Positions 2,268-12,993 of a stretch of 56,262 nt of DNA are shown piece after piece. The number at the start of each line of letters is the position of its first letter. Positions within the stretch are counted from its first letter, which is position 1. The DNA comes from Saprospiraceae bacterium (GTDB lineage: Bacteria; Bacteroidota; Bacteroidia; Chitinophagales; Saprospiraceae): assembly GCA_020630775.1 (NCBI GenBank), contig JAHDIN010000022.1, positions 1 to 56,262 of the forward strand, given 5' to 3'. Made by a program: the position numbers and the translations under genes. The notes beneath the pieces were generated by a model, which did no database searches, was not told the origin of the DNA, and was given only the letters and a program-made list of their open reading frames with translations.

Positions 2268-4660
<2,393 letters not shown>

Positions 4661-5110: not shown

Positions 5111-5985
5111 GCGTCTTAGTTAATAAGAATTCTAAAATTATAGTTCAAGGTATAACTGGTAAAGAAGGTAGTTTTCATGCTTCCCAAATGATTGAATATG
5201 GGACACCAGTTGTAGGTGGTGTGACACCAGGAAAGGGAGGCCAAGAACATTTAGGCGTACCTGTATTTAATACAGTATCTGAAGCAGTTGAAAAAGCAAG
5301 TGCGGATACATCTATTATTTTTGTACCACCTGCATTCGCCGGTGATGCTATAATGGAAGCTGCAGCTGCAGGTATCAAAGTTATCATATGCATCACAGAA
5401 GGTATTCCAGTTCAAGATATGGTAAAAGTGAAAGCTTACATTAATGATATGGACTGCAGATTGGTTGGACCTAATTGCCCAGGAGTTATGACTCCAGGAG
5501 AAGCTAAAGTAGGTATCATGCCGGGCTTTATCCATAATCCAGGAAGAATAGGAATTGTTTCAAGATCTGGTACACTTACTTATGAAGCTGTCGATCAAGT
5601 GACCAAAGCAGGTATGGGACAATCGACTTGTATTGGTATTGGTGGTGATCCAATTCCAGGTACGACGACAAAGGAAGCTGTTGAATTGTTAATGAATGAT
5701 CCAGATACAGATGGTATAGTTATGATTGGTGAGATTGGGGGTAATATGGAGGCTAACGCTGCAAGGTGGATCAAGGAGCATGGCACAAAACCCGTGGTCG
5801 GATTTATTGCTGGTCAAACTGCACCGGCTGGGAGAACCATGGGGCACGCAGGTGCAATTGTTGGAGGAAAAGATGATACAGCAGCAGCTAAAATGGCTAT
5901 CATGAGAGAATGCGGAATTGCGGTTGTCGAATCACCAGCAGATATCGGAGATACAATGGCTAAATTATTGGCTGATAAAGCTTAG
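5107..5985 (+). CDS. sucD: Succinyl-CoA ligase (ADP-forming) subunit alpha
   Basis: This 292-residue protein has an N-terminal CoA-binding Rossmann domain ([19 protein letters not shown]) and a C-terminal ligase domain. The phosphohistidine, His247, lies in the GHAGAIVGG motif. Together with SucC it makes succinate and a nucleoside triphosphate from succinyl-CoA in the TCA cycle; sucC is not adjacent, which is common in Bacteroidota. The start overlaps the preceding divisome gene. An intrinsic terminator follows at 6022-6057. Confidence 0.97.
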
Positions 5986-6021
5986 TAATAAGATGTAAAG
6001 TCAAGGAACCAAAGAGCAATC

Positions 6022-6057
6022 ACCCTTTAAGAGTATTTCTTTTAAAGGGTTTTTTAT
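6022..6057 (+). terminator. Intrinsic terminator after sucD
   Basis: ACCCTTTAA (6022-6030) pairs with TTAAAGGGT (6042-6050), and a T-rich tail follows. It ends the initiator-sucD transcript. Confidence 0.88.
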
Positions 6058-6205
6058 TGTCCAAGAAAATGTACAATGCTTTACACAAGCTATTTTCTGA
6101 AGTCATTTGTTAGCATCACTGAGCACTTTTGTTGGTAAAAACAGGGAATACTAATCTATCGGTATTAAAGTTGTTAAGGTTTGATAGAAATTAAATAGGG
6201 TATAA

Positions 6206-7522
6206 TTGGATTCTGGTATTAAAAAGAAAGTAGATATAGATAAGCTATCTGAGGAATTGGAACTGCTTAGGCATAAATATCGCATACAGTCCTTGCTCAC
6301 TGCATTTATAATTGACTCCCAAAAGAAATATTCTATTGAAGAAATTGCATGGACAATAACAAATAGTCTTATATCTAATCTTGGTTTCGAAGACTGTGTC
6401 GTATATGTTTTGGATGAATCAAAAGAATGCCTAGTTCAGATAGCTGCATATGGCCCCAAAAATCAAGGTGATAACGAAGTAAAGGATAGGCTCGAAATTG
6501 ATTTAGGAGAAGGTATTGTTGGTACAGTTGCACAAACGGGTATTGCTGAGTGTATTAGTGATACATCCGAAGATCCAAGATATATTGTCGATGATGCAAT
6601 TAGGTATTCGGAACTAGCTGTACCGATTATTGTCGATAACAAGGTAATAGGTGTAATTGATTCTGAGCATTCACAAAAGAATTTCTTTAATTCTTTTCAT
6701 ATGGAAATCTTGATGTCTATCGCAGCATTCACTTCAGAAAAGTTGATGAATGCAATCATGTATAAAAAGCTCGAGGAACAGAACAATTCCTTAGAATTAA
6801 AAGTCCAAGAAAAAACAGAATTATTGCAGCAAACTGTTTCTAAACTAAAGAAGTCCAATCAAGAGTTAGAGCAATACGCCCATGTAGTTTCACATGATTT
6901 AAAACAACCATTACGATCAATAAATAGCTTCATACAATTAATAAGTAGAAAAGAAAAAAACCTTACCGACTCTTCTAAGAAGTATATGGCAATTATTTCT
7001 GACTCATGTAAGCAAATGACCAAATTGCTCAATAGCATTCTGGACTATGCCTCATTAAATGGTCAAGAAAAAGAGTATATAGATATAGATTTAAATGAAA
7101 TACTAGGTATAGTATTGAATAATTTATCTCTTCAAATTACTGAAAGCAATTGCCAAATGATTTTTGATGTATTGCCAAGTTTGAAGGCCCACGAATTAGG
7201 TATGATTCAGCTATTTCAAAATATCATTTCCAATTCTATAAAATTTAAAAATCCAGAAATTGACCCGATAATAGAGTTAACCAATCTTAGTAATGAGAAA
7301 CAAGTAGTTATTGAGATTAAAGACAATGGTATTGGAGTTGAAAAAGACGAACAGGAAAATATCTTTTCAATGTTTACTAAACTTCATTCAAAAGTTGATG
7401 GTACTGGTCTAGGACTCAGTCTTTGTAAGAAAATAATGGAACAGCATAATGGCGAGATTAAATTTCAATCTGATGGAAAAGGTAAGGGTAGCACAATTAC
7501 TTTGTATTTTAATTTACATTAA
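6206..7522 (+). CDS. Soluble GAF-domain sensor histidine kinase
   Basis: The 438-residue protein has a GAF domain (about residues 35-180), a coiled-coil linker (about 185-222), a HisKA domain with phospho-acceptor His230 in SHDLKQPLRS, and an HATPase_c domain with the N box (FQNIISNSIKF), DNGIG and GTGLGLSL motifs. No transmembrane segment is visible, so it should sense a cytoplasmic ligand or partner. The HDLKQPL form is typical of phytochrome-like and Bacteroidota kinases. The frame opens after TAA at 6203, so TTG at 6206 is the most likely start. No response regulator is adjacent, so the partner is unknown. It converges on the WYL gene, with only two bases between the stops. Confidence 0.88.
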   Translation: MDSGIKKKVDIDKLSEELELLRHKYRIQSLLTAFIIDSQKKYSIEEIAWTITNSLISNLGFEDCVVYVLDESKECLVQIAAYGPKNQGDNEVKDRLEIDLGEGIVGTVAQTGIAECISDTSEDPRYIVDDAIRYSELAVPIIVDNKVIGVIDSEHSQKNFFNSFHMEILMSIAAFTSEKLMNAIMYKKLEEQNNSLELKVQEKTELLQQTVSKLKKSNQELEQYAHVVSHDLKQPLRSINSFIQLISRKEKNLTDSSKKYMAIISDSCKQMTKLLNSILDYASLNGQEKEYIDIDLNEILGIVLNNLSLQITESNCQMIFDVLPSLKAHELGMIQLFQNIISNSIKFKNPEIDPIIELTNLSNEKQVVIEIKDNGIGVEKDEQENIFSMFTKLHSKVDGTGLGLSLCKKIMEQHNGEIKFQSDGKGKGSTITLYFNLH

Positions 7523-7524
7523 GA

Positions 7525-8532
7525 TTAATAATTAGCTAAGGCCATTCTTAATTTGTTTTTCATTCGATTTCTGAGTTTTTTAGGTTTTAAAATTGTCAGC
7601 GATTCTCCAAAACCAAGTAGTAATCTTTCAAGTTCATAGTTATGGTGAACTTTCATTTGAAATATAATACTTCCATCCTCTTCTTCGGTTAATTTTTTTT
7701 GACTTTTATGAAATGGTTTAGTTAATACATATGGAGCATTTTTTCGATCAACCTTAAACTCAATGTCTATAATGTCATTGTCTGATAATACTGTAACACC
7801 AATAGTATCTTTGTAATACTTGTTGGCATTGAAATTCTTCTGGTTAAGTTTCAATTTCAAGTCCATGTCAATGCTCATGATTCTGTCTAGTGCCAAAGTC
7901 ATCACGCTCTCTCTTCCGTCACATCGACCTACAAGAAACCATCTGTTGTTAAATTCTTTAAGAATATAGGGATGGAAAGTAAAATTACTTTCTCTTCTAG
8001 CAGTAAATGATTTATATGAAATAATTAGTACAATTCTTTTTTGTATTGCTTGATAAAGAATATCTAAGTTTTCTATCCCCTTTAAATTTTCATTTTTTTC
8101 CATATGAATAATTGAGGATTTCTTCTGACTGGTTCTATAAATCTTATCCTCTAGCTTTTGGATTATACCGTTCATTTCAGAGAACAGTGTGAAACTTTTA
8201 AATTGGCTAAGCATTGCCATTGTTTCATTAAGAACATCTAAATCTAATTGCGATAGTGGAACCTTTGTAATGCTATAATTTTCATCTTCATAAGTATAAT
8301 ATTTTCTATCATAACATATTATCGGAGCGTTATACCCTAATTTATCACTTCGCATGGTCTGAATATCAAGTTGTACAGTTCTTTTAGAAACTAAAGTATC
8401 CTTGCCTTCATATTCATACAATGAATCCGAACAAGCTTTAATTAGATTTGTAAGTGTCCATTTTCTATTTCTGTTTTGAAGACACTTGTCAATAGTTCTG
8501 TACCTTATCAATGCATTCTTATTTGTTGCCAT
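7525..8532 (-). CDS. WYL-domain helix-turn-helix transcriptional regulator
   Basis: The 335-residue protein has an N-terminal winged-helix DNA-binding region (about residues 8-65) and a WYL domain (about 155-225) with the core RWFLVG at 197-202, preceded by FHPYIL. A C-terminal extension domain (about 240-330) follows. WYL domains are thought to bind nucleic-acid-type ligands and control DNA-repair or defence genes. The gene is divergent from rtcB across a 65-base intergenic region that holds a perfect palindrome. A matching palindrome and promoter recur before the permuted tRNA pair at 11245. I infer that this protein controls rtcB, itself and that RNA unit. Whether it represses or activates is not visible. 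Confidence 0.9.
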   Translation of the reverse strand: MATNKNALIRYRTIDKCLQNRNRKWTLTNLIKACSDSLYEYEGKDTLVSKRTVQLDIQTMRSDKLGYNAPIICYDRKYYTYEDENYSITKVPLSQLDLDVLNETMAMLSQFKSFTLFSEMNGIIQKLEDKIYRTSQKKSSIIHMEKNENLKGIENLDILYQAIQKRIVLIISYKSFTARRESNFTFHPYILKEFNNRWFLVGRCDGRESVMTLALDRIMSIDMDLKLKLNQKNFNANKYYKDTIGVTVLSDNDIIDIEFKVDRKNAPYVLTKPFHKSQKKLTEEEDGSIIFQMKVHHNYELERLLLGFGESLTILKPKKLRNRMKNKLRMALANY

Positions 8533-8543
8533 AGAATTTTAAT

Positions 8544-8585
8544 TACGCAAATAAATTGCGTAGTTAGATAATATTTTTGATTTAT
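8544..8585 (+). promoter_or_regulatory. Palindromic operator and rtcB promoter (probable WYL regulator site)
   Basis: TACGCAA (8544-8550), a 5-base spacer and TTGCGTA (8556-8562) form a perfect 7+7 palindrome. Twelve bases later comes TTTTGATTTAT (8575-8585). TATTTTTG at 8572-8579 fits the TAnnTTTG -7 box, which places the palindrome centre near -31, where a -33 element would be expected. The same arrangement, with identical spacing, recurs at 11245-11286. Its position between the regulator and rtcB suggests autoregulation as well. Confidence 0.75.
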
Positions 8586-8597
8586 AATTGAATTATT

Positions 8598-9974
8598 ATG
8601 AAAATCAGAGGAAAGGATCTCATTTCAATGGGATATAAACAAGGAAAGTGGTTTAAAGATGCTTTAGTGCATGTTAACAAAATGAGATTAAGTGGATCAG
8701 AATTACTTTTATACTTAGATTCTGTGGCACCTAAAGTAGTTGAACCACATGCAACTCCCGTCAATTTTCACAAGAATATTGAAGCAGAGAACGAGGTAGA
8801 GCAGAATAACGTCAATAGTGTTTTAAATACTATGTATTCCCTTATGAGAACTCCAACTGTAAGAAATGGTGCAGTGATGCCTGACGCTTGTCCTACAGGT
8901 CCTATAGGACAAATTCCTGTTGGTGGAGTAGTAATGACAGAAGATGCTATTCATCCAGCAATGCATAGTGCTGATATTTGTTGTTCTGTTATGATGACTT
9001 CCTTTGGGAGTACCGATCCTAAGAAGGTTTTGGATTTCGCGCATTCTATTACTCATTTTGGTGGAGGGGGTAGGAAGGATCAAAATTTTGAGTTACCTAA
9101 AAGTCTCATAGAGAGAATGAAAGGCAATGAATTTCTAAAGGATAATAATAGTCTACAATTAGCTAAAAGTTATCTAGGTACACAAGGAGATGGTAATCAC
9201 TTTTTATATGTAGGACAATCAGAAAATACTGGTGAAACCATTATGGTCACTCACCATGGAAGTAGAGGTATAGGAGCTTCTCTTTACAAGAAAGGATTGA
9301 GATTAGCTGAATCTTTTAGAAAACAGATTTCTCCAAAAACACTGAAGTATAATGCTTGGATTCCATATTCTGATCCTAAAGGAAAACAATACTGGGAAGC
9401 TCTTCAGATAATTAGAGATTGGACTAAACTAAATCATGAAGTCATTCATCTTGAAACAGAAAAGGCTTTGAGAATTGATCCATTAATACAATTTTGGAAC
9501 GAGCATAATTTTGTTTTTAAAGAAGATAATATGTTTTTCCATGCAAAAGGAGCAACTCCATTGGATGATAAGTTTGTTCCTGATTCTTATAACGGACTCA
9601 GGTTAATTCCATTAAATATGAGTGAACCTATATTGATTGTTAAAGGTCAGACGACAGAAACAAATTTAGGTTTTGCTCCTCATGGTGCAGGTAGAGATGT
9701 CAGTAGAACGCAACATATAAGAAGTAAAGAGGGTAGGACCAAAGAGGAAATCTTTGAAGTAGAAACTAAAGATTTGGATGTAAGATTTTTTTCTGGGGAA
9801 GTTGACATTTCAGAATTACCAAGTGCTTATAAGAATGCTGAAAATGTACAGTCTCAAATGAAGAAGTTTGGATTAGGTGAAATACAGGATAGAATTATTC
9901 CTTATGGTTGTATAATGGCAGGCGATTGGAAAGTCAATGCACCTTGGAGAAAGAAATCAAAGAAAAAGAGATAA
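8598..9974 (+). CDS. rtcB: RNA-splicing ligase RtcB family protein
   Basis: RtcB joins 2',3'-cyclic or 3'-phosphate RNA ends to 5'-OH ends, using GTP and Mn2+, in tRNA splicing or repair. The 458-residue protein keeps the metal and guanylylation residues: Asp126 and Cys128 (HSADIC), His201 (GDGNHF), His219/220 (THHGSRGIG), His315 (FFHAKGATP) and the probable guanylylated His362 in PHGAGRDVSR. The segment SADICCSV differs from the canonical GVDIGCGM, and the protein looks like a divergent bacterial branch. No archease gene is adjacent. It is followed by a small ORF and a terminator, and faces the WYL gene across a palindromic operator. tRNA-like genes and a slipin lie downstream. The lysine/arginine tail (KKSKKKR) may help RNA binding. 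Confidence 0.93.
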   Translation: MKIRGKDLISMGYKQGKWFKDALVHVNKMRLSGSELLLYLDSVAPKVVEPHATPVNFHKNIEAENEVEQNNVNSVLNTMYSLMRTPTVRNGAVMPDACPTGPIGQIPVGGVVMTEDAIHPAMHSADICCSVMMTSFGSTDPKKVLDFAHSITHFGGGGRKDQNFELPKSLIERMKGNEFLKDNNSLQLAKSYLGTQGDGNHFLYVGQSENTGETIMVTHHGSRGIGASLYKKGLRLAESFRKQISPKTLKYNAWIPYSDPKGKQYWEALQIIRDWTKLNHEVIHLETEKALRIDPLIQFWNEHNFVFKEDNMFFHAKGATPLDDKFVPDSYNGLRLIPLNMSEPILIVKGQTTETNLGFAPHGAGRDVSRTQHIRSKEGRTKEEIFEVETKDLDVRFFSGEVDISELPSAYKNAENVQSQMKKFGLGEIQDRIIPYGCIMAGDWKVNAPWRKKSKKKR

Positions 9975-9986
9975 CTTTGCTCTTAA

Positions 9987-10097
9987 ATGAATAAAATTTT
10001 CGAACATATTATAGATGAAAGACCGGAGTTGAGACTTCTTAACCTAAAGGTGCAAGACAATTTCGGACGCTTTATATTATTGGTTTATGAATATTAG
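9987..10097 (+). CDS. Possible 36-residue small protein downstream of rtcB
   Basis: ATG at 9987 opens a 36-codon frame ending in TAG at 10097. It starts 12 bases after the rtcB stop and ends before the terminator at 10127, so it would be on the rtcB transcript. The product mixes charged and hydrophobic residues (starts MNKIFEHIIDERPE, ends in an ILLVYEY tail) and could fold as helix-strand. I recognise no family. The position makes it plausible; length alone would not. Confidence 0.35.
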   Translation: MNKIFEHIIDERPELRLLNLKVQDNFGRFILLVYEY

Positions 10098-10126
10098 TGA
10101 TTAAAAAAACATAAATTGAAAATAGA

Positions 10127-10161
10127 GCGTCCAGTCATTTTGATTGGACGCTTTTTTTTTT
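10127..10161 (+). terminator. Intrinsic terminator of the rtcB transcript
   Basis: GCGTCCAGTC (10127-10136) pairs with GATTGGACGC (10142-10151) with one G-U pair, followed by ten T. This separates the rtcB transcript from the tRNA-like array. Confidence 0.92.
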
Positions 10162-10320
10162 AAATAGGACTTAATAGAAATATAATCAGACTTGAAACAT
10201 AAACGATTGAGAGACAGACAGTTGGATTATTATGTACGAACTGACAAAAGTCAGACTGGTGATATATTGATGTATTATAATTTGTAATTTATTGATAATC
10301 AATTATTTAACATTTAATTT

Positions 10321-10353
10321 TTTGGTTTTTTCAAAATCTTGACTTTACCTTTG
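10321..10353 (+). promoter_or_regulatory. Promoter for the leader ORF and tRNA-like array
   Basis: TTTG at 10321-10324 and TACCTTTG at 10346-10353 fit the Bacteroidota -33 (TTTG) and -7 (TAnnTTTG) boxes with a 21-base spacer. Transcription should begin near 10360, just before the 35-codon ORF. The stretch 10162-10320 is A+T-rich; apart from a small CTGAC/GTCAG hairpin at 10241-10254 I see nothing in it, and no copy of the CGCAA palindrome. Confidence 0.65.
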
Positions 10354-10371
10354 TATTGTAAAATTTTAGAA

Positions 10372-10479
10372 ATGGAATATCAAATGGACATAGAAAGAAA
10401 GCATAGTGGATTTAAGCCCGATACAATGGATAAACTAGAGCAGTTTGTATTTGATCGATTAAAGGAGATCTGTATGTGA
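10372..10479 (+). CDS. 35-codon ORF, possible leader peptide of the tRNA-like array
   Basis: ATG at 10372 opens a 35-codon frame ending in TGA at 10479, just behind a good promoter. Its codons include GAA/GAG, AAA/AAG, GAC/GAT, CAA/CAG, CAT, CCC and CTA. Every amino acid matching the seven anticodons of the following array (Lys, Glu, Asp, Pro, Gln, Leu, His) is therefore represented, in roughly half of the codons. The last codons overlap the 5' arm of a possible antiterminator, and the stop codon lies in a hairpin. It may be a regulatory leader peptide or a real small protein. No family is recognised. Confidence 0.4.
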   Translation: MEYQMDIERKHSGFKPDTMDKLEQFVFDRLKEICM

Positions 10480-10538
10480 TGTATTATATAACATCACATT
10501 TAGAAAGGCATCTCCTTAAGGAGGTGCCTTTTTTTTTT
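10461..10538 (+). promoter_or_regulatory. Possible attenuator: antiterminator versus terminator
   Basis: AAGGAGAT (10462-10469), within the leader ORF, is perfectly complementary to ATCTCCTT (10510-10517). The latter includes most of the 5' arm of the terminator at 10504-10538. Between them TGTGATGT (10475-10482) pairs with ACATCACA (10491-10498), so the two stems can nest. A ribosome that reaches the stop codon at 10477 would cover AAGGAGAT and leave the terminator free. A stalled or absent ribosome would allow the alternative pairing and read-through into the tRNA-like genes. This is inference from base pairing only. Confidence 0.4.
10504..10538 (+). terminator. Intrinsic terminator just before the tRNA-like array
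   Basis: AAAGGCATCTCC (10504-10515) pairs with GGAGGTGCCTTT (10520-10531) around a TTAA loop, with one G-U pair, and is followed by a run of T. Only 19 bases separate it from the first tRNA-like gene, and no promoter is visible in that gap. The array therefore seems to depend on read-through. Confidence 0.88.
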
Positions 10539-10557
10539 GGATTAAATTAAAAAATGA

Positions 10558-10630
10558 TCACCTGTAGCTTAGTTGGCAAAGCACCTAGCTTTTAACTAAG
10601 GGATCGAAAGTTCGAGTCTTTCCAGGTGAA
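10558..10630 (+). tRNA. tRNA-Lys(UUU)-like
   Basis: The acceptor stem TCACCTG/CAGGTGA is a perfect 7 bp. T8 A9, the D-stem GCTT/AAGC, the D-loop AGTTGGCA and A26 follow. The anticodon stem CCTAG/CTAAG has one C-A mismatch; the loop CTTTTAA gives anticodon TTT. The variable region GGATC, T-stem GAAAG/CTTTC and T-loop TTCGAGT are normal. Discriminator A; no CCA is encoded. The first pair is T1-A72 rather than the usual G1-C72 of bacterial tRNA-Lys, so it may not be a housekeeping tRNA. Confidence 0.8.
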
Positions 10631-10641
10631 CAAATAATTAT

Positions 10642-10714
10642 GTCCCGTTCGTACAATGGTTGAGTACGTCCGACTTTCTATCGGGAAATGAGAGTTCGAT
10701 TCTCTCACGGGATA
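10642..10714 (+). tRNA. tRNA-Glu(UUC)-like with pyrimidine at position 37
   Basis: The acceptor GTCCCGT/ACGGGAT pairs with one G-U. The D-stem is GTAC/GTAC, the anticodon stem TCCGA/TCGGG, and the loop CTTTCTA gives anticodon TTC. T-stem GAGAG/CTCTC and T-loop TTCGATT are complete; the variable region has 4 nt. Position 37, next to the anticodon, is T, whereas it is nearly always a purine. No CCA is encoded. Confidence 0.78.
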
Positions 10715-10743
10715 CAAAGATTTTTAAAAGCTGAAATCTAAAT

Positions 10744-10815
10744 AGTACTGTAACTCAATGGTAGAGTATCCGACTGTCTCTCGGAAAGTTGCGGGTTCGA
10801 GTCCCGTCAGTACTG
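10744..10815 (+). tRNA. tRNA-Asp(GUC)-like with pyrimidine at position 37
   Basis: Acceptor AGTACTG/CAGTACT, D-stem ACTC/GAGT and anticodon stem TCCGA/TCGGA are all perfect. The loop CTGTCTC gives anticodon GTC with T at position 37. The T-arm is GCGGG TTCGAGT CCCGT. Discriminator G fits aspartyl-tRNA, but the first pair is A-T instead of G-C. A 21-base stretch over the T-arm and acceptor start (10791-10811) is identical to 11522-11542 in the permuted Arg-like RNA. Confidence 0.8.
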
Positions 10816-10819
10816 CTTA

Positions 10820-10893
10820 CAGGAAACGATCCATTGGTGTGGTTACGTCATTTGGAATGACGGTTATTGGAGGTTCAAATCCTTCTTTCCTGA
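10820..10893 (+). tRNA. tRNA-Pro(UGG)-like, irregular D-arm
   Basis: The acceptor CAGGAAA/TTTCCTG and anticodon stem CGTCA/TGACG are perfect; the loop TTTGGAA gives anticodon TGG. T-stem GGAGG/CCTTC has one G-U, with T-loop TTCAAAT. Irregular points: position 8 is C instead of T, the D-stem ATCC/GGTT has a T-T mismatch, and the variable region has 6 nt. It starts only four bases after the Asp-like gene, so the two must be cut from one transcript. Confidence 0.68.
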
Positions 10894-10924
10894 CTACTGT
10901 GTTTTTAATTATTTACGTAATGGT

Positions 10925-10940
10925 CCCGCCTTATGGCGGG
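10925..10940 (+). repeat. Small GC-rich hairpin between tRNA-like genes
   Basis: CCCGCC and GGCGGG form a 6-bp hairpin around TTAT in the 55-base gap between the Pro-like and Gln-like genes. No T-run follows, so it is not a terminator. It may be a processing signal or a small mobile palindrome. Confidence 0.5.
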
Positions 10941-10948
10941 CAAAATAA

Positions 10949-11019
10949 AACCGTGTGTTGTAATGGTAGCATTTGAGATTTTGACTCTCAAGGTAAAGGT
11001 TCAAGTCCTTTCATGGTTG
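10949..11019 (+). tRNA. tRNA-Gln(UUG)-like
   Basis: The acceptor AACCGTG/CATGGTT has one G-U. The anticodon stem TGAGA/TCTCA is perfect and the loop TTTTGAC gives anticodon TTG. T-stem AAAGG/CCTTT with T-loop TTCAAGT is perfect; the variable region has 4 nt. The D-stem TTGT/GCAT has a T-T mismatch. Discriminator G fits glutaminyl-tRNA. Confidence 0.75.
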
Positions 11020-11024
11020 CAAAA

Positions 11025-11098
11025 ATCCTACTAGCCCAATTGGCAGAGGCGATGGATTTAGAATCCATAAAGTCTGAGTTCAAATCTCAGGTAGGGTA
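11025..11098 (+). tRNA. tRNA-Leu(UAG)-like without the long variable arm
   Basis: Acceptor ATCCTAC/GTAGGGT, anticodon stem ATGGA/TCCAT and T-arm CTGAG TTCAAAT CTCAG are good; the D-stem GCCC/AGGC has one mismatch. The loop TTTAGAA gives anticodon TAG, which reads the leucine codon CTA. Bacterial tRNA-Leu is class II with a long variable arm, but here the variable region is only AAAGT (5 nt). Either it is charged unusually or it is not a normal translational tRNA. Confidence 0.72.
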
Positions 11099-11158
11099 CT
11101 ATTAAGGAGCTTATAAAGAATAATTAAATAGTTAATATTTCTGCTCTTTTGATTTCAT

Positions 11159-11230
11159 GGTGATTCTAGTTTAATAGGCAAAACATCTTGTTGTGACCGA
11201 GAAGAATAGGGTTCGAATCCCAGAATCACC
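11159..11230 (+). tRNA. tRNA-His(GUG)-like with G-1:C73 and a defective T-stem
   Basis: An 8-bp acceptor GGTGATTC/GAATCACC is consistent with the extra G-1 paired to C73 that marks tRNA-His. D-stem GTTT/AAAC and anticodon stem TCTTG/CGAGA (one G-U) are present, and the loop TTGTGAC gives anticodon GTG. The T-arm is irregular: only about four bases separate TTCGAAT from the acceptor, leaving a T-stem of three or four pairs with a bulged A. The 60-base gap before it (11099-11158) holds no clear element. Confidence 0.7.
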
Positions 11231-11244
11231 CTATAAAATTTAAT

Positions 11245-11286
11245 CACGCAATTCTATTGCGCACTAGTGAAATAATTTTGATTTAT
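11245..11286 (+). promoter_or_regulatory. Second copy of the rtcB-type operator and promoter
   Basis: CACGCAA (11245-11251), five bases, TTGCGCA (11257-11263), twelve bases, TTTTGATTTAT (11276-11286). The layout and length equal those of 8544-8585 base for base, with 30 of 42 positions identical by hand alignment and matches concentrated in the palindrome arms and the -7 region. TAATTTTG at 11273-11280 is the -7 box. It should start a transcript near 11290 that covers the two permuted tRNA-like RNAs, controlled together with rtcB. Confidence 0.72.
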
Positions 11287-11443
11287 GATTACGAAATGTT
11301 GTAATCTGAATTCTAAAAAAAAAAGATAAACACTTTAAGTAAAGAAGGATTTAAGGTTTGATCATACTAACATGTGAGTTTCTATATAGCTCCATTGCGT
11401 CTGCCGGTAGGTGATGATGTTCAAGTATTCTGACCTTATACCA
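11287..11443 (+). other. Leader of the permuted tRNA transcript
   Basis: GATTAC (11287-11292) and GTAATC (11301-11306) form a hairpin at the expected transcript start, followed by a run of ten A. From about 11340 to 11443 I recognise neither protein nor RNA. GTATTC (11425-11430) could pair with GGATAC (11448-11453), which would compete with the anticodon stem of the first permuted RNA. Confidence 0.4.
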
Positions 11444-11521
11444 CTTAGGATACGAGGGTCATGGGTTCGATTCCCATACGGTTAACCACCGTTAGCTCAG
11501 AGGGTAGAGCATCGTACTTAT
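11444..11521 (+). tRNA. Circularly permuted tRNA-like RNA, open in the anticodon loop
   Basis: No tRNA can be drawn here in normal order, but every part is present with exact spacing in permuted order. The order is: loop bases CTTAGGA, anticodon 3' strand TACGA (11451-11455), variable GGGTC, T-arm ATGGG TTCGATT CCCAT (11461-11477), acceptor 3' strand ACGGT, a 5-nt loop TAACC, acceptor 5' strand ACCGT (11488-11492), T8 A9, D-arm GCTC AGAGGGTA GAGC, A26, anticodon 5' strand TCGTA (11512-11516), then CTTAT. TCGTA/TACGA and ACCGT/ACGGT pair perfectly. The acceptor stem is closed by a loop and the ends lie in the anticodon loop. Both ends carry ACTTA. The anticodon after joining is uncertain (UAG if the loop is CTTAGGA). 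It could be a remnant of recombined tRNA genes, but the spacing argues for a folded RNA. Confidence 0.5.
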
Positions 11522-11600
11522 GCGGGTTCGAGTCCCGTCAGTTCCCATATTGGAATTGTAGCTCAATTGGTTCGAGCACTAGACTCCTAATCTAGAATTT
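11522..11600 (+). tRNA. Circularly permuted tRNA-Arg(CCU)-like RNA, open before the T-arm
   Basis: The permuted order is: T-arm GCGGG TTCGAGT CCCGT (11522-11538), acceptor 3' strand CAGTTCC (11539-11545), a 6-nt loop CATATT, acceptor 5' strand GGAATTG (11552-11558), T8 A9, D-arm GCTC AATTGGTTC GAGC, A26, anticodon stem CTAGA/TCTAG with loop CTCCTAA (anticodon CCT), variable AATTT. The acceptor strands form 7 bp with one G-U. Without the 6-nt loop the total is 73 nt, the normal tRNA size. Downstream of the variable region no T-arm or acceptor strand exists, so the normal-order reading fails. It directly abuts the other permuted RNA. The T-arm is identical to that of the Asp-like gene, so origin by duplication is likely. 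Confidence 0.58.
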
Positions 11601-11629
11601 GATGAGTGGCAACTCTTTAAAAATGCAAA

Positions 11630-11892: not shown

Positions 11893-12993
11893 ATGAAGCG
11901 AATTACTGTTAAAGCAAATGAAGTTGCTCTTGTTACAAAACTAGGTCGGCTTCAAAGAATCTTAACTGAGGGACAGTATTGGTTATTAAATAGCTACCGC
12001 TACGAGGTCTATCAATTAAATTGTCCAATAACTTTATCTTCTCAATGGGATCATTTAGTAGGCGATCCAAAATTTGCTTCACAAGTTGACCTTGTCGAAG
12101 TATCGGATCAAGAATTGTGGATTGAATTCAAGAATAATTTATTTACTAGACTATTAAGACCAGGAAAATATCTTTATTGGAAATCAGGTCCTAAATTCGA
12201 TTTGACAAGAATGGATTTATCAACTGTAGAGGTAGATTCTTCAATTCCAACATATATCCTTAATAAATCAGATATTCAACAATACCAAAATGTATATGTG
12301 ATTGAAAATTATGAAAAGGGTCTATTGTATATTGATGGAGAATTTATTAAAACTTTAGGACCTGGTATTTATCGATATTGGAAATCGGATAAAATAGCAA
12401 CGGTATCTAAAGTCGATATGAGGGTTCAATTAATTGAGGTTTTGGGTCAAGAAATTTTAACCAAGGACAAAGCTGGCTTACGTGTCAACTTTAGTGCTCA
12501 ATACAAGATCAATGATGTTGAAAAGGCAATGGTACAAACTAAAGATTATTTGAAGCAGTTGTATAACGGCTTACAATTGGTCTTAAGAGAATATCTTTCA
12601 AGTTTAACACTTGATCAAATGTTAGCTAACAAATTGGTTATCGGATCTTATGTATTGGAAAATATCGCTGATAAAGCAGAATTGTTAGGTGTTAAACTGT
12701 TAAGTGGTGGTATCAAGGATATTATTCTTCCAGGTGACATCAAAGAAATTATGAATCAAGTTTTGATTGCGCAGAAGAAGGCTCAGGCAAATACAATTAT
12801 GCGACAGGAAGAAACTGCCTCTACTAGAAGCTTACTTAATACAGCAAAGTTAATGGAACAAAATAGCATGCTATTAAAGCTCAAGGAGATGGAATACATG
12901 GAGAAAATTTCTGAAAAAGTAGGAGAAATTAGTTTGAATGGTGGAGGAAGAGTCATCGATCAATTGAGAAAGCTTGTTATTAGTGATGAATAG
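11893..12993 (+). CDS. Slipin/band-7 (SPFH) family protein of the RtcB-associated type
   Basis: From ATG at 11893 the protein has 366 residues. Two short repeats resembling LQRILTEGQYWLL (about residues 20-32) and FTRLLRPGKYLYWK (about 85-98), and a third near 165 (IKTLGPGIYRYWK), precede an SPFH/band-7 domain (about 185-300), with a coiled-coil tail (about 300-345). There is no clear N-terminal membrane anchor. From memory, slipin proteins of this form often sit beside rtcB in bacterial RNA-repair gene clusters. Here it closes the rtcB/tRNA-like locus, so a shared role is likely, perhaps as an oligomeric scaffold. TTG at 11830 would extend the frame by 21 residues, but the ATG gives the usual family N-terminus. 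A long hairpin follows. Confidence 0.85.
   Translation: MKRITVKANEVALVTKLGRLQRILTEGQYWLLNSYRYEVYQLNCPITLSSQWDHLVGDPKFASQVDLVEVSDQELWIEFKNNLFTRLLRPGKYLYWKSGPKFDLTRMDLSTVEVDSSIPTYILNKSDIQQYQNVYVIENYEKGLLYIDGEFIKTLGPGIYRYWKSDKIATVSKVDMRVQLIEVLGQEILTKDKAGLRVNFSAQYKINDVEKAMVQTKDYLKQLYNGLQLVLREYLSSLTLDQMLANKLVIGSYVLENIADKAELLGVKLLSGGIKDIILPGDIKEIMNQVLIAQKKAQANTIMRQEETASTRSLLNTAKLMEQNSMLLKLKEMEYMEKISEKVGEISLNGGGRVIDQLRKLVISDE

What the first reader, a model, noticed from the sequence alone, without database searches (positions are those of the whole stretch)
11522..11600. A bacterial tRNA gene in circularly permuted order, Arg(CCU)-like
Every part of a 73-nt tRNA is present with canonical spacing, but the T-arm and 3' acceptor strand precede the 5' acceptor strand and D-arm. 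The two acceptor strands form seven pairs across a 6-nt loop; no T-arm exists after the variable region. Permuted tRNA genes are known from some algae and archaea; I do not recall bacterial cases. With a closed acceptor and ends before the T-arm, such an RNA would need end-joining by a ligase such as RtcB, whose gene lies in the same locus. Weak point: its T-arm is identical to that of the nearby Asp-like gene, so a chance junction of duplicated pieces is possible.
Basis: partly seen in the sequence, partly recalled or inferred. Interest (0 to 1): 0.92.

Follow-up and report, generated by a model that had tools for sequence, protein, structure and literature searches.

The report
Permuted tRNA mimic beside slipin gene
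The inside-out tRNA shape is real and conserved, but it is the second half of a two-part RNA that imitates tRNAs, like bacterial Y RNAs, and it probably serves an RNA-repair gene set rather than being a working tRNA gene.

Summary
In detail: 11522-11600 holds all parts of a tRNA in circularly permuted order, and it is not a chance junction. 74 of 79 slipin-bearing entries have the same tandem pair of T-arms upstream of slipin. On 51 aligned sequences 92.9% of cells pair in the permuted fold and 37 of 42 pairs change on both sides, while the ordinary-order acceptor pairs near chance. The tertiary 15-48 pair fits within each permuted unit (50/51, 46/49) but not in ordinary order (15/50).

It is very unlikely to be an Arg(CCU) tRNA gene: its triplet takes 22 values in 49 rows. 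Directly upstream (11451-11516) lies a sister module resembling YrlA, a bacterial Y RNA known to match tRNA by circular permutation. So the finding is the second module of a slipin-linked tRNA-mimic RNA with sealed acceptors, in an island of WYL regulator, RtcB and tRNA array; its upstream palindrome also precedes rtcB. RtcB end-joining is neither needed nor supported. New against YrlA: no Ro60 gene found in this assembly, tandem layout, a complete anticodon arm. Function is inferred only; no transcript data were available.

The parts
11522..11595 (+). Module 2 (the finding): permuted complete tRNA-like unit. T-arm 11522-11538, sealed acceptor hairpin 11539-11558, TA 11559-11560, D-arm 11561-11577, anticodon arm 11579-11595 (loop CTCCTAA)
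11451..11516 (+). Module 1: YrlA-like permuted unit opened at the anticodon loop. Closing stem 11451-11455 with 11512-11516, variable region GGGTC 11456-11460, T-arm 11461-11477, acceptor hairpin 11478-11492 (5 pairs here), TA 11493-11494, D-arm 11495-11510
   Evidence: Rfam YrlA 43.3 bits at 11451-11518, below the gathering score of 69
11376..11392 (+). Hairpin GAGTT-TCTATAT-AGCTC in the upstream part of the RNA, recurrent in relatives
   Evidence: alignment A2 of 34 sequences; function unknown
11246..11280 (+). Palindrome ACGCAATTCTATTGCG (11246-11261) and -7-like TAATTTTG (11273-11280): candidate promoter of the RNA
8545..8561 (.). The same palindrome in the WYL/rtcB intergenic region
7525..8532 (-). 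WYL-domain regulator
   Evidence: Pfam WYL and WCX
8598..9974 (+). RtcB-family RNA ligase
   Evidence: Pfam RtcB, 119 bits
10558..11231 (+). Array of seven ordinary tRNA genes: Lys, Glu, Asp, Pro, Gln, Leu, His
   Evidence: ARAGORN, Rfam
11893..12993 (+). Slipin (SPFH/Band-7 protein); start at the ATG at 11893 is my inference, the listed ORF begins at TTG 11830
   Evidence: Pfam Band_7, 94.7 bits

Best explanation
The feature is the second of two circularly permuted, acceptor-sealed tRNA-like modules in one structured RNA (candidate start near 11287, extending past 11595) encoded directly upstream of slipin. Shown by comparison: both modules keep the tRNA core in permuted order; module 1 is opened at the anticodon loop, as in the bacterial Y RNA YrlA; module 2 is opened in the variable region and keeps a whole anticodon arm with a free triplet. 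Inferred from the shared palindrome: the WYL regulator controls this RNA together with rtcB, probably in response to RNA or translation damage. Inferred mechanism: with sealed acceptors the RNA should not be charged or used in translation; it works as a tRNA-shaped platform that recruits proteins recognising the tRNA elbow (repair, modification or decay enzymes) to a slipin-centred complex, much as YrlA recruits PNPase, while the array supplies ordinary tRNAs and RtcB reseals broken ones. Permutation is a way to present a tRNA shape inside a longer RNA, not a gene that needs end-joining. I hold what it is at about 0.9 and the platform role at about 0.4; the figure below is for the statement as a whole.
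For: Covariation and double changes in all eight helices; the same eight helices predicted by RNAalifold without a given structure; 15-48 tertiary pair in 50/51 and 46/49, only 15/50 in ordinary order, also without the Flavobacteriales-type rows (21/21, 18/19); U8, A14 and D-loop GG nearly invariant. YrlA matches to both modules. Every R1 hit of 100 bits or more in 395 phylum genomes (16, own included) lies beside slipin. Palindrome at only two places in the window and three in the assembly, placed 14-15 nt before TTTG in 51 of 57 loci that have it. YrlA binds PNPase, and DusA and TruB modify it (PMC8394870, passages). In Anabaena one repressor controls a tRNA operon, rtcB and a slipin operon (PMC10272220, passages and section 8).
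Against: Single-sequence folding prefers other structures by about 11 kcal/mol on average, and the module 1 closing stem is in 2 of 51 minimum-energy folds. YrlA scores are below Rfam's gathering cut-off. The ordinary tRNA model scores above its cut-off on these modules in several relatives (for example L100 40.2 bits). Ordinary tRNA arrays reach 96.9 bits with model R1, overlapping the weakest slipin-linked hit (94.5). No expression, binding or phenotype data.
Confidence: 0.55

Rival explanations
1. Bait or sensor: the two tRNA-shaped modules, especially the anticodon arm with its variable triplet, attract tRNA-cutting toxins; cleavage spares real tRNAs or signals damage that switches on repair.
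For: 22 triplets in 49 rows with U33 (45/49) and purine 37 (43/49) kept; RNA-repair setting. Wolin and colleagues suggest the YrlA tRNA-like domain could competitively inhibit an anticodon nuclease (PMC7790460, passages).
Against: Module 1 has no anticodon loop; in Salmonella YrlA itself is reported not to be cut (PMC7790460).
Confidence: 0.3
2. Leader RNA of slipin: the modules are a cis-acting 5' region that tunes slipin expression, for example by binding a tRNA-processing enzyme.
For: Fixed place upstream of slipin and same strand; the RNA follows slipin, not RtcB.
Against: Distance from the second T-arm to slipin varies from about 300 to 980 nt (in part because matches start inside the gene); YrlA-like modules elsewhere are separate RNAs.
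Confidence: 0.25
3. Permuted tRNA gene: variable-region ends are joined by RtcB, the acceptor loop is cut out, CCA is added and a working tRNA-Arg(CCU) results.
For: All parts and spacing present; RtcB in the locus; known permuted tRNAs have intervening sequences of 1-74 bp (PMC3978253, passages).
Against: Free anticodon, nucleotide 1 not conserved, outermost acceptor pair often broken; sister module cannot decode; presence follows slipin rather than RtcB.
Confidence: 0.05
4. Two decayed ordinary tRNAs whose junction looks permuted by chance or after duplication.
For: T-arm identical to the Asp gene in the window; ordinary tRNA models hit parts of the region.
Against: Covariation in the permuted assignment and near-chance pairing in ordinary order; tandem layout in 74 of 79 entries.
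Confidence: 0.02

Closest known systems
YrlA, bacterial Y RNA (Rfam RF02553; PDB 6CU1)
   Same: Order stem, T-arm, closed acceptor hairpin, UA, D-arm, stem; superposes on tRNA by circular permutation (PMC11472068, passages); found in an rtcBA operon in Salmonella (PMC7790460, passages)
   Different: Here two modules in tandem, the second with a whole anticodon arm; outer Ro60-binding stem not matched; no TROVE gene found in the own (53.9% complete) assembly or in 58 of 59 other genomes searched; partner gene is slipin; scores below Rfam's cut-off
SPFH/Band-7-linked 'novel tRNA-like molecule' of RNA-repair systems (Burroughs & Aravind 2016; abstract recalled, paper not held)
   Same: Recalled: a tRNA-like noncoding RNA as cognate of SPFH/Band-7 genes in RNA-repair systems; probably the same association
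   Different: Whether the permuted order, the tandem modules or the anticodon arm were described there could not be checked
Circularly permuted tRNA genes of algae and archaea
   Same: 3' half before 5' half with a short intervening sequence at the acceptor (PMC3978253, passages)
   Different: Those mature through a circular intermediate into working tRNAs; here the triplet is free, the partner module cannot decode, and no maturation evidence exists
Anabaena TrcR regulon (tRNA operon, rtcB, slipin)
   Same: tRNA operon, rtcB and slipin under one regulator; the tRNA operon is switched on by translational stress (PMC10272220, passages and section 8)
   Different: Other phylum and regulator, genes dispersed; whether an RNA of this kind lies there was not checked

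Membership tests
YrlA / bacterial Y RNA | tRNA-like module: T-arm, closed acceptor hairpin, D-arm, closed by a stem | tested here: met
   Module 1. Module 2 meets it except that its closing stem is an anticodon hairpin
YrlA / bacterial Y RNA | Rfam RF02553 gathering score of 69 bits | tested here: not met
   43.3 and 30.4 bits in the window; 36.7 and 32.0 in L079
YrlA / bacterial Y RNA | Ro60/Rsr (TROVE) partner gene | tested here: not met
   None in the own assembly (53.9% complete); 1 of 60 genomes has one. 17 of 91 locus sequences do, 16 of them Chryseobacterium
YrlA / bacterial Y RNA | Basal stem that binds Ro60 | tested here: inconclusive
   YrlA model positions outside 21-89 are unmatched in the window; no protein-binding test
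Circularly permuted tRNA gene | Permuted order with paired acceptor strands | tested here: met
Circularly permuted tRNA gene | Conserved anticodon identity and tRNA acceptor features | tested here: not met
   22 triplets in 49 rows; nucleotide 1 not conserved
Circularly permuted tRNA gene | Joined ends, circular intermediate, CCA-ended charged product | not testable with these tools
   No RNA-seq or biochemistry available
Ordinary tandem tRNA genes | Acceptor strands and 15-48 pair formed in ordinary order | tested here: not met
   48.7% of cells against 43.3% in shuffles (1 of 500 shuffles reaches it); 15-48 in 15 of 50
SPFH/Band-7-linked tRNA-like RNA | tRNA-like RNA encoded beside a slipin/Band-7 gene in an RNA-repair locus | tested here: met
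   family definition recalled, not read

The most novel reading that the evidence does not exclude
Slipin-linked RNA-repair loci carry a tRNA mimic that exists in both possible orders: circularly permuted with sealed acceptors in Bacteroidota (and apparently in E. coli), and ordinary order at the same place in Photobacterium and Burkholderia. Evolution has thus permuted a tRNA fold in place, and in Bacteroidota has built a complete permuted tRNA with a freely varying anticodon: a platform or bait that keeps the tRNA shape while dropping charging and decoding.
Probability: 0.3. Interest if true: 0.8.

Novelty: new variant of a known kind. Interest (0 to 1): 0.62.

Why it matters
It adds a conserved class of permuted tRNA mimics, scoring below the cut-off of its nearest Rfam family, to a known one (YrlA), and ties it to slipin and a shared palindrome with rtcB instead of Ro60. 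If the mimic recruits or baits tRNA-acting enzymes, it gives a handle on how bacteria sense and mend broken tRNAs, on what this slipin does, and on why tRNA arrays sit beside RNA ligase genes. The 15-48 covariation is direct evolutionary evidence that a permuted RNA keeps the tRNA core. It also shows that ordinary tRNA models mislabel such RNAs.

Tried and rejected
Chance junction of two decayed tRNAs: my first idea, dropped. Ordinary-order acceptor pairing: near chance. A conserved small protein downstream in Chryseobacterium (FFQLLNQHFEK-like): similar stretches appear in different frames in different loci, so dropped. Model R1 alone as a census tool: rejected, since ordinary arrays score up to 96.9 bits while the weakest slipin-linked hit has 94.5. 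Third palindrome in the assembly (C44:29685): only three ORFs of 80 aa or more in the 5-kb stretch, none examined further. First count of the -7 element used too strict a pattern (16 of 57), repeated as the position of TTTG. Slipin in phage records: one short weak match.

Rows dropped before counts: A1 uses 51 of 71 prepared entries, thinned by hand, mostly Chryseobacterium. The 71 exclude L112 (same sequence as L038), L040 and L037 (taken as near-duplicates) and L043, L062, L074 (one T-arm found), L093, L118 (no clear pair). T-arms were chosen by motif (TTCRA loop, 4 of 5 stem pairs, GG), so T-arm conservation in A1 is by construction; the other helices and the 15-48 pair were not used for choosing. 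Rows are related, which inflates cell counts; one search repeats the 15-48 test on 21 rows without a hand-made list of Flavobacteriales-type loci. The 100 'other' junctions include Y-RNA-like modules, which raises their mean. Model R1 was built from A1, so hits on its own members match by construction, and unnamed G genomes may be the same as named loci.

Not in print: searches listed no paper that I could see describing this RNA (listings, plus passages of nine papers: and one whole section). The library lacks most subscription papers; Burroughs & Aravind 2016, Chen 2014 and Wang 2018 were not held, so priority is unsettled. One search opened an unrelated paper through a misremembered DOI.

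Full report
THE OBSERVATION. ARAGORN finds seven ordinary tRNAs at 10558-11231 and none here. Rfam's tRNA model takes 11552-11617 as a weak ordinary tRNA (33.6 bits).

SURROUNDINGS. The island is WYL regulator (7525-8532, minus), RtcB (8598-9974), tRNA array, the RNA, slipin (Pfam). The assembly has 3.1 Mb in 84 contigs and is 53.9% complete. A close RtcB (58% identity or more over nearly the whole protein) is in 14 of 60 genomes, own included, with a fragment in a further one. 76 slipin loci came from genome contigs; the number of tRNAs found in them varies from none to many.

CONSERVATION. In L031 and L033 the same place holds the same layout with other letters. A descriptor scan found it upstream of slipin in many loci, often twice. 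T-arms chosen without regard to acceptor pairing occur as a tandem pair 57-85 nt apart upstream of slipin in 74 of 79 entries (window, the 76 loci, L112, L118); L043, L062 and L074 show one, L093 and L118 no clear pair. Acceptor strands defined only by arm positions pair 6.42 of 7 near slipin (99 rows) and 3.44 elsewhere (100 rows); distinct strand pairs give 6.20 against 3.85 +- 0.16 with shuffled partners.

STRUCTURE. MAFFT alignment A1 (51 sequences) against the permuted structure: 92.9% of 2109 cells paired, 37 of 42 pairs with changes on both sides, 521 double-change cells (shuffles 151 +- 11); sliding the partners drops pairing to 37-48% (one search gives 38.6-47.3%). Weak spots: closing stem of module 1 at 84.6%, outermost acceptor pair of module 2 unpaired in 20 of 50, fourth D-stem pair of module 2 unpaired in 23 of 51. 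RNAalifold, given no structure, returned the same eight helices, three of them shorter by one or two pairs. Ordinary-order acceptor pairing reached 48.7% against 43.3% in shuffles; 1 of 500 shuffles reaches it, but slid versions reach 49.6%. The tertiary 15-48 pair is G-C or A-U in 50 of 51 rows (module 1) and 46 of 49 purine-pyrimidine rows (module 2); the ordinary-order assignment gives 15 of 50 and the swapped control 13 of 50. U8 (50 and 47 of 51), A14 (51 and 49 of 51) and the D-loop GG (51 and 51) are nearly invariant.

Against this, single-sequence energy minimisation prefers other folds (mean -44.4 against -33.5 kcal/mol for the permuted fold) and shows the module 1 closing stem in 2 of 51 folds, though the acceptor hairpins appear in 44 and 39 of 51; the window's own fold is not unusually stable (z -1.30). 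Such programs ignore tertiary contacts and modified bases, so I weigh the comparative evidence more. Ordinary tRNA models also score above cut-off on these modules in several of nine relatives scanned.

WHAT IT IS. Rfam's YrlA (bacterial Y RNA) matches module 1 (11451-11518, 43.3 bits, E 2.9e-8) and the finding (11521-11577, 30.4 bits, E 1.5e-4), below its gathering score of 69; L079 gives 36.7 and 32.0 bits. The YrlA consensus has the same order: stem, T-arm, closed acceptor, UA, D-arm, stem. A structure-comparison paper states that Y RNA 6CU1 superposes on tRNAs as a circular permutation (PMC11472068, passages). A review describes YrlA's tRNA-like domain as resembling D, T and acceptor arms, modified by DusA and TruB and binding PNPase, with the basal stem holding Rsr (PMC8394870, passages). 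So a permuted tRNA layout in bacteria is known, as Y RNA. Different here: no TROVE gene in the own (incomplete) assembly and in 58 of 59 other genomes, YrlA's outer stem unmatched, two modules in tandem, and in module 2 a complete anticodon arm. Its triplet takes 22 values in 49 rows while U33 (45/49) and purine 37 (43/49) stay. Decoding is therefore very unlikely.

PARTNER AND CONTROL. Covariance model R1 hits at 94 bits or more in 9 of 60 genomes, each beside slipin; slipin at 41% identity or more is in 10 of 60, the tenth (G056) having only weak R1 hits of 66.4 and 51.0 bits. Of the 14 genomes with close RtcB, 5 have the RNA. In 395 genomes drawn from the phylum 25 have R1 hits at E 1e-19 or better: 16 (own included) lie beside slipin, at 100.4 bits or more; the other 9 lie among ARAGORN tRNA genes with no slipin in the stretch fetched, at up to 96.9 bits. 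A palindrome ACGCAA-N-TTGCG occurs at two places in the window (0.05 matches expected), between WYL and rtcB and before the RNA, and at three places in the assembly. In 57 of 71 loci a 9-of-12 match or better lies 185-245 nt before T1, with TTTG 14-15 nt downstream in 51 of them. I infer a WYL-controlled promoter shared with rtcB; binding was not tested. In Anabaena the repressor TrcR controls a tRNA operon, rtcB (77-fold up in the mutant) and a slipin operon (slipin 42-fold up) (PMC10272220, passages and section 8).

BEYOND BACTEROIDOTA. Slipin relatives on plasmid records also have T-arms upstream (model R1 gives 16 to 47 bits). In E. coli the T-arm is followed at once by a 7 of 7 hairpin (best ordinary-order alternative 5); in Citrobacter by a 6 of 7 hairpin, which ties with the best ordinary-order pairing. 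In Photobacterium (first T-arm) and three Burkholderia records (second T-arm; similar sequences) the best pairing is ordinary order at 7 of 7, against 3-4 for a hairpin; the fourth Burkholderia record is undecided, and Subdoligranulum has a hairpin of 6 of 7 in the script's register. The ordinary-order figure is the best of some 60 positions, so 5-6 is expected by chance. The E. coli stretch is covered to 80% or more in 1,620 of 5,426 E. coli genomes. This suggests one slipin-linked mimic in both orders, but on few sequences and without a covariation test.

FUNCTION. Committed reading: a tRNA-shaped platform for a slipin-centred RNA-repair or decay complex, controlled together with RtcB. Shown: permuted folds, conservation, slipin linkage, shared palindrome. 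Inferred: transcription, WYL control, protein recruitment, damage response. Rivals: bait or sensor for tRNA-cutting enzymes (0.3), slipin leader (0.25), processed permuted tRNA (0.05), decayed array (0.02); platform, bait and leader are not exclusive.

NOVELTY. A new variant of a known kind. The kind is the bacterial Y RNA/tRNA mimic and, by recollection of an abstract only, the SPFH/Band-7-linked tRNA-like RNA of Burroughs & Aravind 2016 (not held). Library searches listed no description of this RNA.

Noticed in passing
window 9987-10154 and 10372-10533: Two short ORFs (36 and 35 codons), each followed by a strong terminator-like hairpin, lie between rtcB and the tRNA array; the same two-step layout is in L031, L033, L038 (same as L112) and L108. 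They look like attenuators coupled to translation; the ORFs were picked as the longest ATG frames, so they are weak evidence.
   Followed up: partly
L056 8944-11930 (Chryseobacterium oryctis): A Ro60/TROVE gene (8965-10557) with the same palindrome just before it (8944) is followed by several Y-RNA-like modules, about 2 kb downstream of slipin; 16 Chryseobacterium loci have this TROVE gene. Both kinds of tRNA mimic share one island.
   Followed up: partly
L177 about 4165-4300; L178, L179, L180 upstream of slipin: At the slipin locus of Photobacterium and Burkholderia the tRNA-like unit appears in ordinary order, in some with a GAAA-capped anticodon stem.
   Followed up: partly
L175 about 4315-4350; L176 about 4361-4400: In E. 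coli and Citrobacter slipin islands (beside rluF and lysC; RtcR and a nucleotidyltransferase gene nearby in Citrobacter) a T-arm followed by a closed hairpin lies upstream of slipin; Rfam shows no tRNA or YrlA match there at E 0.01. The E. coli stretch is in 1,620 of 5,426 genomes.
   Followed up: partly
window 11376-11392: Recurrent hairpin with loop TCTRTAT in the upstream part of the RNA, of unknown role.
   Followed up: partly
G000:C44:29685-29700 (L167 about 2186): Third copy of the palindrome in the assembly, with no evident partner gene in the 5 kb around it.
   Followed up: partly
L031 about 5697-6207; L033 about 5691-6193: An ORF of roughly 170 codons sits between the array's Leu and His tRNAs in these relatives but not in the window (read by eye).
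   Followed up: no
window 10558-11231: The array holds Lys(ttt), Glu(ttc), Asp(gtc), Pro(tgg), Gln(ttg), Leu(tag), His(gtg); several of these are, by recollection, favourite targets of tRNA-cutting toxins. Whether they duplicate housekeeping copies was not tested.
   Followed up: no
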